The notes under the pieces: generated by a model
What the model saw: the letters and a program-made list of their open reading frames with translations, nothing else
Told to the model about the DNA's origin: nothing
Databases searched by the model: none
Assembly: GCA_015229115.1 (NCBI GenBank)
Contig: JADGCH010000004.1
Location: forward strand, 1 to 64,000
Length of the DNA: 64,000 nt
Source of the DNA: Magnetococcales bacterium
GTDB lineage: Bacteria > Pseudomonadota > Magnetococcia > Magnetococcales > JADGCH01
Reading direction: 5' to 3'
Part shown: piece after piece, positions 5,237 through 34,607 of the stretch
Layout: every line of letters begins with the position of its first letter
Position numbering within the stretch: the stretch's first letter is position 1
Made by a program: the position numbers and the translations under genes

Positions 5237-5309
5237 GGGATCTGTCGCAGTAGCGCTGCTTCCTCCTCCGCTGATATCTGTCTCGATGCTTATTCGACTG
5301 AGCAGGGAA

Positions 5310-5341
5310 CCCCCTCTCTCCAGGCGGGGCAAGAGAGGGGG
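5310..5341. terminator. GC-rich hairpin between convergent genes
   Basis: A perfect 10-bp stem, CCCCCTCTCT (5310-5319) with AGAGAGGGGG (5332-5341), lies in the gap between the convergent SixA-like and PPC-repeat genes. There is no T-tract on either side, so this may be a transcription-ending or 3'-protecting hairpin rather than a classic intrinsic terminator. It resembles the other pyrimidine-rich palindromes in the window. Confidence 0.5.
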
Positions 5342-5363
5342 ATAGTGTCTCGTGGGTGGGCGG

Positions 5364-6881
5364 TCAGGTGGAGCTGATCACCGTCAGCATGTAAGACCCG
5401 GTTGCCGATGCGGACCCTTGCGCCGACAGATAGAAATCACCGCTCTGGGTCGCTGTGTAGGTAATGCGCGAGTCCTTGCGATTGCGGGTGATGTCGTTGT
5501 TCTGCTGTACCATAGCCCCGGTGGCGTCCAACAGGCGCAGATAGGGGTCACGTAGACCGGTCGCTGTGGCATCGTTGCGCAGATCAAAGGTGTAGCGACG
5601 ATTAGCTTCCAAGGCTACCTTAAACCAGTCCTGATCATCCTTTAATTCGATATTGCCTGTTTTGATCAGACCCGTGGCAGGGATAGCCTCAGCCGTGGCT
5701 GCATTGACCACCTGAGCTACATCCACCCCAAGATCGGTTACCGTCAGGGTGTAGCCATCCTGCTGTGGATCGTCACGACGCAACTTACCCTGTGCCGCCA
5801 GATAGAAATCGGCCGTGGTTTCCGGTTTATAGAGCAGCAAGGCATCGGAATGGTCACGGGTCCGGTTGTCGTTGTTAGCGACGACCGTGCCGCTGCTGTT
5901 GAGAAGCTGGATTTTAGTGTCGAGATTTTCACCGGCCTTGGCCATCATTTCAATACGATAGATATGACCTGCCGCTAGTTGTTGAGTACCGGTCAGGGCG
6001 AACCAGTCCTGATCGCTGCTGGTTTCGATGCGCCCACTGATGGGAGTGCCGATCGTCATGGCTGTGGCAGCGGCCGTGGTGGCGCCATAATCATCGGCCA
6101 TGGAAATCTGCATCCGGTAACGACCGGTGGTGGTACCAACTCCGCTGGCTGACAGGTAATAAGCCCCGCCAGTCTGGTCGGTGGTGAAGGTTAGCCGTGA
6201 ATTTTTGTTTTTGGTCGAGATGTTATCATTTTCCTGGCCGGACACCAGCACACCATCACTGCCCATGATGCGCAGCAGCGGATCAAGACCACTCTGCGCC
6301 GTCAGAGGCGCATCGGCAATCAGGTTAATGACATAGCTGCTGCTGGCTGCCAGGGTGACCTTAAACCAGTCCTGATCGCCACTGGTTTCGATGATATTGA
6401 CGGTTTCCTGAATCGGCGCTGCGACAGTCGGTGTGGTGATCGTCGCTGGTGTCCTGGTATCCTGGCTGGCGTTGATGTATTGGGTTACGGCCAGCGTATA
6501 CTGACCACTGTTCTTGTCGCGGCCGAGATTGCTGGCCGAAGCCGAAGCAGCAGCCACACCGATGATGGCGTTGGCAACGGTACTGGTCGGTGTGTAGAGC
6601 AGCATGCTGTTACGGCCATTGGCAGCGCTACTGGCCAAATCAGTGGTTGCGGTACCATCGCTGGACATCAGTTTCAGCGACGGTTTCCAGCGCGCATCGC
6701 TGGCGTTGAGCTCGATGACGTAGGTATAAGCCGTTGTCAGACCGCCACTGACATTAAACCAGTCCTGATCACTACTGCTGTTGATGCGGCCCAGCACGCG
6801 GATATTGGCGGAGATGGTGGCGGCAGTGCTGATGGTAGCACCATATTCGTCGGTATTGGCTAAAGAATTCGGGTTGGGCAT
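5364..6881 (-). CDS. Protein of four PPC-like beta-sandwich repeats
   Basis: A 505-residue acidic, Ser/Thr/Asp-rich protein built of four modules of about 120-130 residues. Each contains a DQDWF core (residues 38, 169, 290 and 416) followed by Y-x-(I/F)-x-L strands and a Y(T/M)L-x-V closing strand. This is the pattern of bacterial pre-peptidase C-terminal (PPC) domains, normally found on secreted proteases, but no catalytic domain is present here. No classical signal peptide is visible, so non-Sec export, for example type I, is inferred. AAGGAG lies just before the start and a promoter at 6925-6952. A surface or extracellular binding protein is likely. Confidence 0.8.
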   Translation of the reverse strand: MPNPNSLANTDEYGATISTAATISANIRVLGRINSSSDQDWFNVSGGLTTAYTYVIELNASDARWKPSLKLMSSDGTATTDLASSAANGRNSMLLYTPTSTVANAIIGVAAASASASNLGRDKNSGQYTLAVTQYINASQDTRTPATITTPTVAAPIQETVNIIETSGDQDWFKVTLAASSSYVINLIADAPLTAQSGLDPLLRIMGSDGVLVSGQENDNISTKNKNSRLTFTTDQTGGAYYLSASGVGTTTGRYRMQISMADDYGATTAAATAMTIGTPISGRIETSSDQDWFALTGTQQLAAGHIYRIEMMAKAGENLDTKIQLLNSSGTVVANNDNRTRDHSDALLLYKPETTADFYLAAQGKLRRDDPQQDGYTLTVTDLGVDVAQVVNAATAEAIPATGLIKTGNIELKDDQDWFKVALEANRRYTFDLRNDATATGLRDPYLRLLDATGAMVQQNNDITRNRKDSRITYTATQSGDFYLSAQGSASATGSYMLTVISST

Positions 6882-6924
6882 GGTAAAGCTCCTTCATAAG
6901 CGGGTTGGAGATGCGATGCAGCCA

Positions 6925-6952
6925 ATTGTAACAGCACGTCGGCCCAAGTCAA
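6925..6952 (-). promoter_or_regulatory. Sigma-70-type promoter for the PPC-repeat gene
   Basis: On the minus strand TTGACT (6952-6947) and TACAAT (6930-6925) are 16 bp apart. The start point would be near 6918, about 37 nt before the ATG at 6881. The -35 overlaps the last codons of the upstream kinase gene, so the PPC gene can be transcribed independently. Confidence 0.55.
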
Positions 6953-9900
6953 TCAAAAAGTGCGGAGGATCTGCCCATCTGTTGAATGACCTCCAGCAGG
7001 CGCTGCTTTTTGATCGGTTTAGAGAGGTAAAGGTCACAGCCAGCCTCACGGCTGCGATCGGCTTCCCCTTCCAGGGCGTGGGCGGTCAGGGCCACGATCG
7101 GCAGGCGTGCACGACCTGTTTCTTGCTCCCACTGGCGGATGACACGGGTGGCGCTGTAGCCGTCCATGATGGGCATTTGCACGTCCATCAGCACTAGGTC
7201 AAAGGCATGTTCCTGGGCTAGGCGCACCGCTGTTGCGCCGTCGGGGGCTACTTCCAGATGGTGGGGCAGATGGTGGGGGGTACGCTTGAGAAAGGTGCGG
7301 ATCAGCAGTTGGTTGTCTTCCGAATCCTCGGCCAGCAGAATGCGCAATGCGCTGTTGTCTGAGACAGGATTGGCCGTCGGTACGGCATCCGTGACAGGGC
7401 TGGTTGCTGGCCGTAATGGCAACGTAAAGCGGAAGGTACTACCTGCGCCGGTCCGGCTTTCCACCCAGATGTTGCCCTCCATCAGCTTGACCAACTGCCG
7501 TGACAGGGCCAGTCCCAGACCTGTGCCGCCGTAGCGCCGTGTGATGCCAGCATCGGCCTGGGTAAACTTGTCAAAGATGACCGCCAGATAGTCCGGATCG
7601 ATACCCTGGCCGGTGTCGGTCACTGAAAAACGCAGCTGCCCATCATTTCCATCGAACGCCACGTCCACCACGACGGCTACTTGCCCCCTATCGGTGAACT
7701 TGATGGCATTGCCCACCAGGTTGAACAACACCTGACGCAGCCGCAGCCCGTCAGCCATGATCCACTCCGGTACGTTTTCTGCTACCGTCAGCGTCAAGGC
7801 CAGTCCCTTGCCAATAGCCATCGTCCTGAGCAGACCCGTCACTTGTTCCACCAGAGACCGAATCGCCAGCGCTTCTTCCCTGATCTCCAGCATACCTGCT
7901 TCGATTTTGGAAAAATCCAGGATTTGGTTGATCAATTCCAGCAGGTTGGTCCCTGACTGTTGCAGTTTATCGACATAGCCGCGCTGTTCTGGGTCGAGAT
8001 GGGTTTCCAGTAGCAGGTCTCCCATGCCGATCACCACGTTCATGGGAGTGCGGATCTCGTGGCTCATGGCGGCCAGGAAGTTGCTTTTGGCTTGGCTGGC
8101 TAATTCCGCCCGTTCCCGGGCCTGAAGCAGTTCCTGTTGTTGGCGGCGGTTTTCTGAAACATCCCGGGCAGCGGCGTAGATCAACTGGTCACGGTAGGGT
8201 GTGGAATGCCACTCGATCCAGCGCCAGGAGCCATCCTGGCAGCGGTAGCGATTGACAAAGTGGCGCACGCGATTCCCCTCTACCAAGGCAGCCATAGCGG
8301 CCTGGGTGGCCGGAATATCGTCCGGATGGACCAGATCCAGGAAGAGTCGTCCTTCCAGCTCCTGCACAGGATATCCTAGCGTGTGTTGCCAAGCTTGATT
8401 TAACCGCAAAAAATGCCCCTGGGTATCGGCAATGCACAGCAGGTCCAGCGACAGGCTAAAGAAACGATCCAGGGTTTCAGCGCTCTCCTGCAAGGCTAGG
8501 GAGGTGTTCTTGATTTGGTGGTCGAAACCTTTTTGCCGCCGCTGGTAGATATGGAGGCCCAGGACTGAGACCACGACTAAAACTCCGAACAGACTGCCCT
8601 GCAGGCGAGCCTCCCGATACCATGCGGCGTAGATACTGGCCAGATGACGGCTCACGCCTACTACCAGGGTCTTATCCAGGGGCAGGTCAGCGTTACGGAT
8701 CGTGCGGAGGGCCAATAGACGCTCCTCCCCCGCAACCTGGGATGGACCCGCTCTTATGCTCTCGACCAGTCCACTCTGCTGGTGGCGAGTGAACAGGCTA
8801 TCAGGATGGTTCAGTTCTTTGCCCGCCACGTCTTCCCTTTCTGGCTCAACCAGGAAGATCATCCCATCCTCATGCGTAATGGAGCTCCACATGTCCGGGG
8901 TGTAGAGAACCGAGGAGAGCAGTGCCTTGAAATAGTCCGGATCAAGTGTTGCCGCCACAATACCCTGAAACTCGCCTCCTGGGCCAGTCATGGAGAGGGT
9001 CAAATTCATGATCCACACCCCAAGGAAGCCCTTAAACGGAGGGGAAAGGTGCAGCATGGCAGGATTATTGGCCTGTTTGGTGGTTTGAAAGTAGGGTCTC
9101 TGACTGTAATTCTGGCCCATCAACTCCTTGCGGTTGGATACCAGAACGTTGCCTTGGGCATCAAACAGGTTTATGGTGCGAATGCCGGGCATGGCGTCAC
9201 ATAAAGCTTTGATGCGGCGACTGGCTTCCGTCTGCCAGTTGGGAGAGCCTTGCCAGGCAGGAAGATCGTTGCGTAGGCCCTGCAGGGCCAGATAGGCCGA
9301 AGCCAGTTGGCGACTCAGATTAACGTCGATGACCCGGGCTTGGGTACGCAGGCGATCCCGTTCCTGGTTATCCAGCTGGTCATATCCCTGTAGTAGAAAG
9401 AACCCGATCACCCACCCCAGCACCAGCAGCGCCAAGGTTAACATCACCCACTGGGCGGCGTAGGGATTGCCAACCAGGTGGGAGGAGTGTCTCCAGCCAA
9501 AGGCCACAATAGCCACACCGGCCACCACGAAACCAACGGCCGTTTGAGGTGCCATGCGGGTATAATACATCCAGCCATAGGCGGCTTCCAGCTGGATCAG
9601 ATAGCCGAGTAGGGTCATGATGCCCATTCCCAGTACCATACCTCCCAGCAACCATACCCCATGCCAGACAGTAGCGTGAGTAGTACGCCGGAAGGCCGCT
9701 CCTGCCAGTGCCACACCGGTTAGCGTGAAACAGAGCGCGGTATTGGGAGCCATACGGCCTGGGTGGATGGTATGGTCTGTGATAAAGGGCTGCATGAACA
9801 ATTGGTCGATAGCCAGATCGACTCCCGCCAAGTATTCCATCAGCGATAGCCCACCCAGCAGCAGCACCCCAGCGCCACACCATGCGACCAGAGCACGCCT

Positions 9901-13004: not shown

Positions 13005-13778
13005 ATGAACAAGATGGCGTCCATTCTTATTGTTGATGACGATGCTGACCTGTGCCAGATGGTACAGACTTACATGAATAACAATGGATTGCAGATACTG
13101 ATCGCGTCGGATGGACGCGGCATGAGGAAGATTCTGGACAATACCAGCGTCGATTTGATCATTCTCGATCTGATGTTGCGCGATGAGGATGGGCTGGTGT
13201 TGTGCCGTAATCTGCGGGCACGGTCCGATATTCCGGTCCTGATTCTGAGTGCCAGGGGTGAGGAAATGGATCGCATTATCGGTCTGGAAATGGGTGCCGA
13301 CGATTATTTGCCCAAGCCGTTTCACATGCGCGAACTGCTGGCCCGTGTCAAGAGTATTCTCAGGCGTGGTCGTGCCCATCAAACGGACGACCGTTTTGGC
13401 GACGATGTGGTGTATCGTTTTGCTGGCTGGATGCTGGATAACCTGTCGCGCCAGTTGCGGTCACCGGACGGTGGCCATGTGCTGGAGTTGAGCAGCTCCG
13501 AGCATACGCTGTTGCGTGTTTTTCTGACTCATCCCAACAAGGTACTGACCAGGGAGCAGCTTCTGAACCTGTCACGTGGGCATCCGGCCGATGCCGATGA
13601 CCGTAGCATCGATATGCAGATCAGTCGGCTACGGCGGCGCTTGCTGGAGACACCCAAGTCTTCGTCGCTGATTCGTACCGTACGTAGCACCGGTTATCTT
13701 TTCTCGGCCGAAGTGGATCGGGGTGTCAAACAGAAGGAGGGTACCCTGGTTTTTACGCCAATTGTTGCGCCAGCATGA
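13005..13778 (+). CDS. OmpR-family response regulator
   Basis: 257 residues. The receiver domain spans about 5-120, with the acidic pair in IVDDDAD and phospho-acceptor Asp55 in IILDLMLRDEDG. The winged-helix DNA-binding domain spans about 145-240 (LTREQLLNLSRG, RSIDMQISRLRRRL, RTVRSTGYLF). It follows an Hpt protein by 8 bp and has no adjacent sensor kinase. Its stop TGA (13776-13778) falls at the junction where the Rpn-like gene begins, in an ATGA overlap, so before the insertion it was presumably coupled to dtd. The target genes are unknown. Confidence 0.92.
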   Translation: MNKMASILIVDDDADLCQMVQTYMNNNGLQILIASDGRGMRKILDNTSVDLIILDLMLRDEDGLVLCRNLRARSDIPVLILSARGEEMDRIIGLEMGADDYLPKPFHMRELLARVKSILRRGRAHQTDDRFGDDVVYRFAGWMLDNLSRQLRSPDGGHVLELSSSEHTLLRVFLTHPNKVLTREQLLNLSRGHPADADDRSIDMQISRLRRRLLETPKSSSLIRTVRSTGYLFSAEVDRGVKQKEGTLVFTPIVAPA

Positions 13779-14734
13779 AGAGCCTGCTTCAGCGCGAGAC
13801 CTTGCCACCACAGGATGAGTACGACACGCCTTGGAAGGAAGTGATCGAAGAGTTTCTTGATGATCTGTTGGCCATGCTGCTGCCCGATCTTCACGACCTT
13901 ATCGACTGGTCACGCGCTCCGGAGTTTCTCGATCAGGAACTGGCGCGCATTCTGGTTGATGCCGTTACCACCGATCGGCGGGTGGATAAGCTGGTCAAGG
14001 TGTGGCTCAAGGATGGCAGCGAGCACTGGATCCTGCTGCATGTCGAGGTACAGGGTGATAGGATCGCCGGATTTGAAGAGCGCATGTTCCAGTGTTATTA
14101 CCGTATCTACGATCTGTTCCGCAGGATGGTGGTCGGTATCGCCCTGCTGGCCGACATGGACGACGGCTGGCGTCCGCAGGAATATCGTTCCGGACTGCTC
14201 GGCAGTCAGGTCGTTTATCAGTTCAATGCCGTCAAGCTGTTGGACTATGTAGGTCGTGAAGATGAGTTAAGAACATCGGACAATCCCTTCGCTGTTGTCC
14301 TGCTGGCCCATCTGTATGCCAAAAGAACCCGGGGCGATGCCGATCGACGCTATCAGGTCAAGAAGGAGATGATCCGCGGCTTGTACCAGAAGGGATGGGA
14401 GCGCCAGAAGATCCGGTGGCTATTGCGCTTCGTCGACTGGGTGTTGCAGCTATCAGAGGTCGCTAACCAGCAGCTATCGCGGGAGCTGGCAGAAATTGAG
14501 GGGGTCAACAGAATGCCATCTTATGTAACCAGTTTTGAGCGGATTGGGATCGAGAAGGGCCAAAAGTCCGTGCTGCTGCGTCAGTTGCGGCGCCGTTTTG
14601 CCGACTTGCCAGCGTGGGTTGAGTCGAGAGTGCAAGGTGCCAATCTGGAGCTGCTGGGGGAGTGGGCTGATCGGTTTGTGGACGCTCATTCTCTGGAGGA
14701 AATTTTTGGTGATGAGAGGCAGACGGCGCATTGA
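13775..14734 (+). CDS. Rpn-like PD-(D/E)XK protein with DUF4351-type C-terminus
   Basis: 319 residues of the Rpn/putative transposase group. The core TPWKEVIEEFLDDLL, the D71-KLVKVWLKDG segment and HVEVQ (Glu91, Gln93) fit a PD-(D/E)XK nuclease site. The C-terminal VLLRQLRRRFADLPAW...LEEIFGD is a DUF4351-like tail. Related Rpn proteins promote recA-independent recombination; activity here is unproven. The first seven codons, MKSLLQR, are identical to the start of the downstream dtd product. The stop TGA lies inside the second copy of a 21-bp direct repeat, so the gene appears to have inserted into dtd and taken over its start. Confidence 0.85.
   Translation: MKSLLQRETLPPQDEYDTPWKEVIEEFLDDLLAMLLPDLHDLIDWSRAPEFLDQELARILVDAVTTDRRVDKLVKVWLKDGSEHWILLHVEVQGDRIAGFEERMFQCYYRIYDLFRRMVVGIALLADMDDGWRPQEYRSGLLGSQVVYQFNAVKLLDYVGREDELRTSDNPFAVVLLAHLYAKRTRGDADRRYQVKKEMIRGLYQKGWERQKIRWLLRFVDWVLQLSEVANQQLSRELAEIEGVNRMPSYVTSFERIGIEKGQKSVLLRQLRRRFADLPAWVESRVQGANLELLGEWADRFVDAHSLEEIFGDERQTAH
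13776..13796 (+). repeat. Direct repeat, left copy (21 bp)
   Basis: The 21 bp beginning TGAAGAGCCTGCTTCAGC are identical to 14732-14752. The two copies bracket the Rpn-like gene. The left copy lies directly after the A of the ATG at 13775 and supplies the first codons of the Rpn-like protein. Confidence 0.9.
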
Positions 14735-15165
14735 AGAGCCTGCTTCAGCGCGTCACCCGTGCTGAAGTGCGGGTTGCCGATCAGGTTGTCGGACAGATTG
14801 CCGCTGGGGTAGTGGTTTTTGTTGCCGTGGAGCGGGGCGATCAGGAAGGCATGCTGCATCAGATGGCTGAGCGGATTGTGCGGTTACGCATGTTTTCCGA
14901 CGATGCCGGGCGCATGAACCGTTCTCTGCTCGAATGCGGTGGCGCAGCTCTGGTAGTGTCGCAGTTTACCCTGGCGGCTGATTTGGCCAAGGGTCACCGG
15001 CCTTCGTTCAGTCGTGCCGAGGCCCCGGATCGGGCACGCCATTTGTATCACCAATTCTGTCTTGATCTGGCACAGCAGGGTGTTGAGGTGGCCCAAGGGG
15101 TGTTCGGGGCCGATATGCAGGTTGATTTGGTCAACGACGGGCCGGTCACTTTCTGGCTGGAATGA
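14731..15165 (+). CDS. dtd: D-aminoacyl-tRNA deacylase
   Basis: 144 residues. It hydrolyses D-aminoacyl-tRNA and Gly-tRNA-Ala. Family motifs are intact: MKSLLQRVTRAEV at the N-terminus, SQFTLAADLAKGHRPSF (catalytic-loop Thr) and the Gly-cisPro region VNDGPVTFWLE at the C-terminus. The only start that keeps the conserved N-terminus is now TTG at 14731, overlapping the Rpn-like stop (TTGA). The ancestral ATG is most likely the one now used by the Rpn-like gene at 13775. Translation may therefore depend on coupling to the inserted gene and may be reduced. Confidence 0.93.
   Translation: MKSLLQRVTRAEVRVADQVVGQIAAGVVVFVAVERGDQEGMLHQMAERIVRLRMFSDDAGRMNRSLLECGGAALVVSQFTLAADLAKGHRPSFSRAEAPDRARHLYHQFCLDLAQQGVEVAQGVFGADMQVDLVNDGPVTFWLE
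14732..14752 (+). repeat. Direct repeat, right copy (21 bp)
   Basis: The exact second copy of the 13776-13796 repeat. It contains the Rpn-like stop codon at its first three bases and encodes KSLLQR of Dtd. Separation of the copies is 956 bp start to start, the size of one gene unit. Confidence 0.9.
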
Positions 15166-33751: not shown

Positions 33752-34607
33752 TTAATGATAATGGACCGGTTTAAGATCACCAAAAATATCCTGCAGGGAA
33801 CGGGCATCCAGAATAAGGTCGCTCCACCGTTCCAGCGTGCTGACGTCGGCTCCCAGAACTTCACGTTCAATCCAGCTGGGTAATTCGGGGAAACGACGCC
33901 GCAATTGACGCAACAACATCAGTGCCTCCCCTTCTTTCATGCCTTCCTGGCGGCCTTCCTGGCGGCCTTCCTGGCGGCCTTCCTGGCGGCCTTGTTCCCA
34001 CCATGGTTGAACCCATTTTTGCACAGTCTCTGCTAACATTTCACCGATATCCTCCAAGTCGACAAGTTCCGGAAGTGTTTGCCCTGCCAATGCCTGACGC
34101 GGCAGCAGTACCCGCTGCAACCAGGACAAAAAATCGCGCCGCAAACTGACCTGTTCTGGTCGCAGCAACCGATGCAGACGTCGGATCAGCTCCGCTAGCT
34201 CCTGCCGTGACCGGCACAGCTCCATGCCGATCTGAATGGCAGCCAGATTACCCTGTGCCACCAACTTGGTTAGGGTGTTTCCGGCAACCGTGTTGATGTC
34301 AATCAGAACGTAACAGCCACAACGCAGCATACGAAACCGCTCTAACCGGCATCATGCCATCTGAGGTGGTTTGCACCTCAAATGGCAAGTAAACGGGCCA
34401 TTCCACGCCCGGCAACCCCGCACGCCATACCAGATCATCCTCCTTCTGGCGCTGATTATCGGCTACAAAACGGGTGGGGACCTTCTGTAGCGTCGTATAG
34501 TCAAGCTGTTTGACCCAAGGCCTGTCTACAAAACCAAGCAGCAGATCGCGCATCATTTCAGGATGCGAGTAGATTCTCTTGTAGCTGCTGTCCTGATCCT
34601 GCATCAA
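33752..34607 (-). pseudogene. Decayed Rpn-like/DUF4351 gene
   Basis: Two frames together cover an Rpn-like protein. 34299-34607 encodes the N-terminal part (IYSHPEMMRDLLLGFVDRPW, WPVYLPFEVQTTSDG) and stops. 33752-34330 encodes the C-terminal part, ending in a DUF4351-like tail (LMLLRQLRRRFPELPSWIE, LQDIFGD). The junction lacks the central stretch of roughly 40-60 residues expected in family members, so an internal deletion with a frame change has broken the gene. It is a different subfamily from the intact copy at 13775. The C-terminal piece carries four GRQE units. Confidence 0.75.
33943..33990 (-). repeat. Four 12-bp tandem repeats in the Rpn-like remnant
   Basis: Four exact copies of CTTCCTGGCGGC (plus strand) encode EGRQ on the minus strand. 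Rpn-family proteins often carry such E/G/R/Q/K tetrapeptide repeats before their C-terminal tail. The array can expand or contract by slippage in frame. Confidence 0.85.

What the first reader, a model, noticed from the sequence alone, without database searches (positions are those of the whole stretch)
13775..14752. Rpn-like gene inserted at the dtd start with a 21-bp direct repeat, taking over the host start codon
Seen: the Rpn-like gene is bracketed by identical 21-bp copies (13776-13796, 14732-14752). The left copy follows the A of ATG 13775 and the right copy begins one base after the T of TTG 14731. Both proteins therefore begin MKSLLQR, which is natural for Dtd but foreign to the Rpn family. 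Inference: a single-gene unit of 956 bp inserted near codon 7 of dtd, duplicating the target, so that the inserted gene uses the old ATG and ribosome site while dtd is left with TTG overlapping the inserted stop. This would be a snapshot of how these mobile-like nuclease genes move and stay expressed without killing the host gene.
Basis: partly seen in the sequence, partly recalled or inferred. Interest (0 to 1): 0.78.

Follow-up and report, generated by a model that had tools for sequence, protein, structure and literature searches.

The report
Toxin-like gene inserted at dtd start
A single nuclease-toxin-like (Rpn/DUF4351) gene has landed inside the start of a tRNA-proofreading gene, copying about 20 bases of it on the way in so that both genes still read, and relatives show the same kind of landing elsewhere with 20 to 160 copied bases, although published work found no such duplications for this gene family.

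Summary
TGAAGAGCCTGCTTCAGCGCG lies at 13776-13796 and 14732-14752 and nowhere else in the 3.15-Mb genome with 2 or fewer mismatches. The sequence is native to dtd: all Magnetococcales dtd genes checked begin MK/MR-x-[LVI][LVI]QR. It is foreign to the inserted gene, whose four close paralogs (76-85% identical) lack MKSLLQR and share DNA only from just after the left copy to the stop codon. hpt-ompR-dtd is conserved across the order, and G009 keeps an uninterrupted ompR/dtd 4-nt overlap. So a roughly 935-bp gene inserted into dtd with an 18-21-bp target duplication, taking dtd's ATG; dtd now starts at TTG overlapping the inserted stop.
It is not isolated. Among 104 single-copy family members, six are bracketed by duplicated ends of neighbour genes (16-163 bp), against 1 of 878 control intervals (p = 8e-6). 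For three of them congeners show the empty site with one copy. Lengths vary, so this is not IS-like; it matches "insertion with long, variable target duplication" described for restriction-modification genes. Zhong et al. 2023 reported no target duplications for rpn genes. A conserved internal start supports RpnL/RpnS-like toxin-antitoxin identity. The break-and-fill mechanism is inferred.

The parts
13005..13778 (+). ompR-type response regulator; its stop TGA overlaps ATG 13775
   Evidence: Response_reg + Trans_reg_C; C-terminus aligns to the last residue with G001; same gene order upstream of dtd across the order
13776..13796 (+). left copy of the 21-bp repeat = original position of the dtd 5' end
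   Evidence: dtd-type N-terminus in all relatives
13775..14734 (+). inserted Rpn-like gene (319 aa, DUF4351 C-terminus) reading from the old dtd ATG
   Evidence: paralog homology starts just after the left copy and ends at the stop codon
13797..14731 (+). inserted DNA proper (end could be as far as 14734: TGA is shared by the gene's own stop and dtd)
   Evidence: paralog DNA homology limits -25 / 0 relative to anchor and stop
13985..14053 (+). putative PD-(D/E)XK active site D71 ... E91-V-Q93
   Evidence: invariant or nearly invariant in 23 aligned members
14498..14515 (+). putative internal ribosome site (GAGGGGG) and internal start Met247 for a C-terminal antitoxin-like product
   Evidence: invariant Met; SD-like sequence in 95% of 76 members vs 5% of control codons; GAGGAG codons 70/71 at the site vs 63/256 elsewhere
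14546..14701 (+). DUF4351 domain
   Evidence: PF14261, 28.3 bits, cut-off 25
14714..14719 (+). possible Shine-Dalgarno (GAGAGG) for the new dtd start, inside the inserted gene
   Evidence: sequence inspection only
14732..14752 (+). right copy of the repeat, now the 5' end of dtd
14731..15165 (+). dtd, D-aminoacyl-tRNA deacylase, now starting with TTG
   Evidence: PF02580, E 1.6e-52

Best explanation
A roughly 935-bp DNA fragment carrying a single Rpn/DUF4351-type nuclease gene, lacking its own start codon or losing it at the junction, inserted into the 5' end of dtd and duplicated 18-21 bp of it. Shown: the repeat, its dtd origin, the gene-sized inserted segment, the ancestral ompR-dtd coupling, and the same pattern at other loci. 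Inferred: insertion occurred at a double-strand break with staggered ends of variable length (made by an Rpn-type nuclease or by the host), the gaps were filled, and only insertions whose duplication kept the neighbouring genes readable survived. The inserted gene probably uses dtd's old ATG and ATGA coupling to ompR, and dtd is probably read by TTGA coupling to the inserted gene. The gene is most likely an RpnL/RpnS-type nuclease toxin with an internally started antitoxin.
For: Exact repeat at both ends, unique in the genome. dtd N-terminus MK/MR-x-[LVI][LVI]QR in relatives, absent from paralogs. Uninterrupted ompR/dtd 4-nt overlap in G009, and gene order hpt-ompR-dtd without rpn in many families. 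Same genus: different rpn at the same junction with 11/13 nt of the dtd start duplicated, background frequency 1.5e-5 per position. Family survey: six single-copy loci with duplicated neighbour-gene ends out of 104, vs 1/878 control intervals, Fisher p = 8e-6. Empty single-copy orthologous sites in congeners for L141 (G021, G029), L130 (G024, G028, G035) and L274 (G020, G004). L141: paralog homology begins at -88 and the duplicate ends at -95. Internal start and SD conserved at codon level.
Against: No donor copy above 85% aa identity was found, so movement within this genome is not seen. Ninety-eight of 104 single-copy members show no repeat at the threshold used or only a dispersed one (decay or another route). 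The sequence is a MAG contig; reads across the junctions were not examined. No same-genus empty site exists (G001 is occupied). TTG 13802 could be the inserted gene's own start, so start-codon takeover is likely but not proven.
Confidence: 0.85

Rival explanations
1. Homology-facilitated illegitimate recombination: DNA from a relative carrying rpn next to a piece of the same neighbour gene recombined on one side by homology and on the other by microhomology, leaving two copies of that piece. The copies would then differ by the donor-recipient divergence.
For: Copies in some loci are only 85-97% identical (L273, L274, L130). rpn paralogs are 15-25% diverged, pointing to import from outside.
Against: The focal copies are 21/21 identical and 21 bp is short for homologous pairing; L141 is 70/71. 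It requires rpn to sit already beside dtd in the donor, which only moves the question back. Divergent copies also fit an older insertion.
Confidence: 0.12
2. Conventional transposition: an IS-like element with a fixed target duplication and defined ends.
For: Single gene, multi-copy (about 30 per genome here, up to about 57 in the order), empty sites exist.
Against: Duplication lengths range from about 16 to 163 bp, ends vary, and no terminal inverted repeats at the unit ends were found.
Confidence: 0.03
3. No insertion event made the repeat: rpn arrived between ompR and dtd some other way, and the dtd 5' end was later copied upstream (or conserved) to give rpn a start.
For: The left copy does provide an in-frame ATG and ompR coupling.
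Against: The left copy sits at the ancestral dtd position, since the ompR C-terminus and ATGA overlap are conserved with G001 and G009 has the same coupling. Duplications at gene 3' ends elsewhere in the family give no start codon.
Confidence: 0.05
4. Assembly artefact joining two places at a shared 21-mer.
For: 21 bp is a k-mer size that assemblers use; the genome is a 184-contig MAG.
Against: A chimera would need the dtd 21-mer at both ends of rpn in its true location. Both ORFs stay intact and in frame, and the same pattern recurs in other assemblies.
Confidence: 0.03

Closest known systems
Insertion with long and variable target duplication of restriction-modification genes (Nobusato et al. 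2000; Furuta et al. 2010, as described in PMC3031569, PMC1643837, PMC3874152)
   Same: Nuclease-encoding selfish gene inserted without a transposase; host sequence of variable length (order of 100 bp) duplicated at both ends; the form allows tandem amplification.
   Different: Here a single rpn/DUF4351 gene rather than an RM pair; lengths from about 16-21 bp up; in the focal case the insert takes over the target's start codon.
Rpn (recombination-promoting nuclease) toxin-antitoxin genes (Kingston 2017 PMC5350276; Zhong 2023 PMC10327210)
   Same: DUF4351 C-terminus, conserved internal start with SD, 4-aa repeats, multi-copy, tandem arrays, variable ends, repeated insertion at one junction (rpnC at panC-panD).
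   Different: Zhong et al. report no identifiable target-site duplications; here six loci show them. The N-terminal domain of the focal protein is not hit by PF04754.
Insertion sequences
   Same: Presence/absence of one gene at syntenic sites with direct repeats.
   Different: No fixed repeat length, no terminal inverted repeats, ends close to start and stop codons.

Membership tests
Rpn family (PF04754 / COG5464 RpnL) | N-terminal match to the Rpn/Transposase_31 model | tested here: not met
   Focal protein: only DUF4351. 2 of 23 relatives hit PF04754 weakly, best E 9e-4. No NCBIfam Rpn model hit for the focal protein.
Rpn family (PF04754 / COG5464 RpnL) | PD-(D/E)XK nuclease core | tested here: inconclusive
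   D71 and Q93 invariant, E91 nearly so, in 23 sequences. The structure model is poor (pLDDT 60.5) and its fold search is uninformative.
RpnL/RpnS toxin-antitoxin | C-terminal DUF4351/RpnS domain | tested here: met
   PF14261 above cut-off; 20 of 23 members
RpnL/RpnS toxin-antitoxin | internal start with ribosome-binding site for RpnS | tested here: met
   conserved Met with SD in 95% of 76 members vs 5% control; GAGGAG 70/71 vs 63/256. Sequence evidence only; the focal gene has the weaker GAGGGGG.
RpnL/RpnS toxin-antitoxin | four-residue repeats at the start of the C-terminal domain | tested here: met
   42 of 93 members, 2-8 units; the focal copy itself shows no expansion
RpnL/RpnS toxin-antitoxin | nuclease toxicity relieved by RpnS | not testable with these tools
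   needs expression assays
Insertion with long variable target duplication | host sequence duplicated at both ends | tested here: met
   focal plus five other loci
Insertion with long variable target duplication | empty orthologous site with one copy in close relatives | tested here: met
   met in congeners for L141, L130, L274; for the focal site only outside the genus (G009)
Insertion with long variable target duplication | length varies between insertions | tested here: met
   18-21, 16-20, 71, 70-110, 91, 163 bp
Insertion sequence / DNA transposon | fixed-length target duplication and terminal inverted repeats | tested here: not met
   variable lengths; no inverted repeat pairs the unit ends

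The most novel reading that the evidence does not exclude
Rpn/DUF4351 nuclease toxin-antitoxin genes are themselves mobile by a transposase-free route: the Rpn nuclease makes staggered breaks of variable width into which its own gene is copied, giving insertion with variable target duplication. This would explain their spread and unify them with restriction-modification genes.
Probability: 0.25. Interest if true: 0.85.

Novelty: new variant of a known kind. Interest (0 to 1): 0.6.

Why it matters
Rpn genes are widespread, multi-copy and clearly acquired and lost one at a time, yet how they move is open; the main study saw no target duplications and judged transposition unlikely. Loci with duplicated target and matching empty sites show that at least some arrive by insertion with variable target duplication, as reported for restriction-modification genes. 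That points to break-capture driven by nuclease genes as a general route for small defence/toxin genes. The focal site also shows how such a gene can enter an operon, borrow the target gene's start codon and keep the target readable.

Tried and rejected
Fixed-length target duplication: rejected, lengths vary. Repeat as a dispersed element: rejected for the focal site and for L141/L130 (own-genome hits only at the two copies plus weak ones); L259's 50-bp repeat judged dispersed and left out. Tandem-array members (L124, L145, L123, L128, L158, L164, L247, L240, L021) were counted separately, since their repeats follow from tandem duplication. L139's weak 21-28-bp similarity was not counted. AlphaFold model and fold search uninformative. 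PDB profile search gave nothing. No viral contig matched the peptide patterns of the gene. First search around L141 hit the gene itself instead of the flanks but gave the paralog limits. Six of the seven control hits were the L141/L130 repeats themselves re-sampled and were removed, leaving 1 of 878.

Full report
OBSERVATION. The two 21-bp copies are exactly where reported. In the whole 3.15-Mb genome the 21-mer occurs only there with up to two mismatches; the one other match has three. The inserted ORF is 13775-14734, and dtd, identified by PF02580, is 14731-15165 with a TTG start. Coupling is preserved at both joins: ompR's stop overlaps the inserted ATG (ATGA), and the inserted stop overlaps dtd's TTG (TTGA).

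WHERE THE REPEAT COMES FROM. The window is from a Magnetococcales genome: the closest named hits are Magnetococcales MAG nWRX3bin11. dtd in about 30 relatives begins MK/MR-x-[LVI][LVI]QR, so the sequence is dtd's own. The inserted gene has four near-full paralogs in the genome, 76-85% identical, which align from residue 5-11 onward. Their DNA homology begins at or just after the end of the left copy (-25 to -6 relative to the YDTPWKE anchor; the copy ends at -23) and ends at the stop codon. Their N-termini differ (MDDQPLPPQDEYD, VHESPPPQDEYD, MEIPPVYEAKQSRDEYD). The left copy is in the ancestral place: ompR's C-terminus and ATGA overlap align with the same-genus genome G001, the order hpt-ompR-dtd is conserved across families, and in G009 ompR still overlaps the dtd start by four bases with no insert. 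The insert is therefore about 935-938 bp with an 18-21-bp duplication, TGA being shared by the inserted gene's natural stop and dtd.

SAME JUNCTION TWICE. G001 (dtd 82% identical) carries a different Rpn-like subfamily gene, now frameshifted, between ompR and dtd. The 13 nt left of it (CCAACATGAAGGT) match the dtd start (CCAGCATGAAAGT) at 11 of 13. This is the best non-self match in the 6-kb contig, with a background frequency of 1.5e-5 per position. Either the junction was hit twice or an old occupant was exchanged. Kingston et al. 2017 (PMC5350276) inferred two independent rpnC insertions at panC-panD.

FAMILY SURVEY. I fetched 131 members of two subfamilies from about 40 genomes. Of these, 27 have another family piece within 1.5 kb (arrays). 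Among the 104 single-copy members, seven have flanking direct repeats at E <= 1e-4 within 400 bp; one (L259) is a dispersed element, leaving six: the window (21/21), L148 (16-20 bp, 5' part of a methyltransferase gene), L141 (71 bp, 98.6%, 3' end of a mucR-like gene meeting miaA tail to tail), L130 (70 bp at 97%, possibly about 110, 3' end and terminator of a convergent gene), L274 (91 bp, 93%, 3' end of flhB) and L273 (163 bp, 85%, 3' end of the upstream gene). Neighbour-gene names (mucR-like, miaA, flhB, methyltransferase) are from my reading of the translations, not from a family search. Controls: 1 of 878 intervals after removing re-sampled rpn loci; Fisher p = 8e-6. Orthologous empty sites with one copy and no rpn were found in congeners for L141 (G021, G029), L130 (G024, G028, G035) and L274 (G020, G004). 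L273's left flank and an rpn hit lie together on one contig of G019, consistent with an older shared insertion.

WHAT THE GENE IS. Pfam gives only DUF4351 for the focal protein. D71 and Q93 are invariant, and E91 nearly so, across 23 relatives, consistent with a PD-(D/E)XK core, but the fold could not be confirmed. An invariant Met before the C-terminal domain is preceded by an SD-like sequence in 95% of 76 members (5% of control codons). The two Glu codons there are GAGGAG in 70 of 71 cases against 63 of 256 elsewhere, so the DNA and not only the protein is constrained. Together with four-residue repeats in 42 of 93 members, this matches the RpnL/RpnS gene-within-gene toxin-antitoxin of Zhong et al. 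2023 (PMC10327210). Functional proof is lacking, and the N-terminal family model is not met.

MECHANISM. Variable duplication length, near-naked gene units, variable ends and no terminal inverted repeats exclude a standard IS. The pattern is that of 'insertion with long and variable target duplication' described for restriction-modification genes (PMC3031569, PMC1643837, PMC3874152). The most economical account is capture of a gene fragment at a staggered break, followed by fill-in. Selection would then keep cases where the duplication leaves neighbours readable, which would explain why all six duplications are ends of genes. Whether the Rpn nuclease makes the break is not shown. In the focal case the fragment apparently lacked its own start and reads from dtd's ATG, but an in-frame TTG at 13802 leaves this open.

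NOVELTY. The kind of event is known; its occurrence in the Rpn/DUF4351 family is not reported in the papers I could search. Zhong et al. state that rpn coding regions are not flanked by identifiable target-site duplications, and that ends vary. The present loci agree on the ends and contradict the first point for some members.

LIMITS. MAG contigs without reads; no strain-level comparison; no donor copy; most members show no repeat; Furuta et al. 2010 and Nobusato et al. 2000 were known only through citing papers.

Noticed in passing
window 14498-14515 and 76 family members: Conserved internal SD plus Met start before the DUF4351 domain, with codon-level conservation (GAGGAG 70/71), suggesting a separately translated antitoxin across the Magnetococcales family.
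   Followed up: partly
G001:C277 (L100: 963-1728): A different, frameshifted Rpn-like gene occupies the same ompR-dtd junction in the only same-genus genome.
   Followed up: yes
L124 (G031:C88), L145, L123, L128, L158: Tandem arrays of Rpn-like genes, up to five copies with a 966-bp period; linkers start at the stop codon.
   Followed up: partly
G000 contigs C151, C118, C140, C122, C77: Very similar DUF4351 C-terminal modules (up to 70-73% identity) sit behind quite different N-terminal domains, suggesting swapping of the C-terminal module.
   Followed up: no
window 33752-34351 (-): Another DUF4351-bearing, apparently truncated family ORF in the window.
   Followed up: no
L058 (G019) and L059 (G033): DUF4351 coding sequence convergent with and immediately downstream of dtd in two other genomes.
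   Followed up: no
whole order: Family copy number ranges from 0 to about 57 per genome among 41 Magnetococcales genomes.
   Followed up: no
L259: Dispersed palindrome-containing repeat (GGGGAGCGTCACGCTCCCC) around an Rpn-like gene in G040.
   Followed up: no
window 5250-5650 vs 6610-7010: 18-bp exact direct repeat, the only control hit of the flank-repeat test.
   Followed up: no
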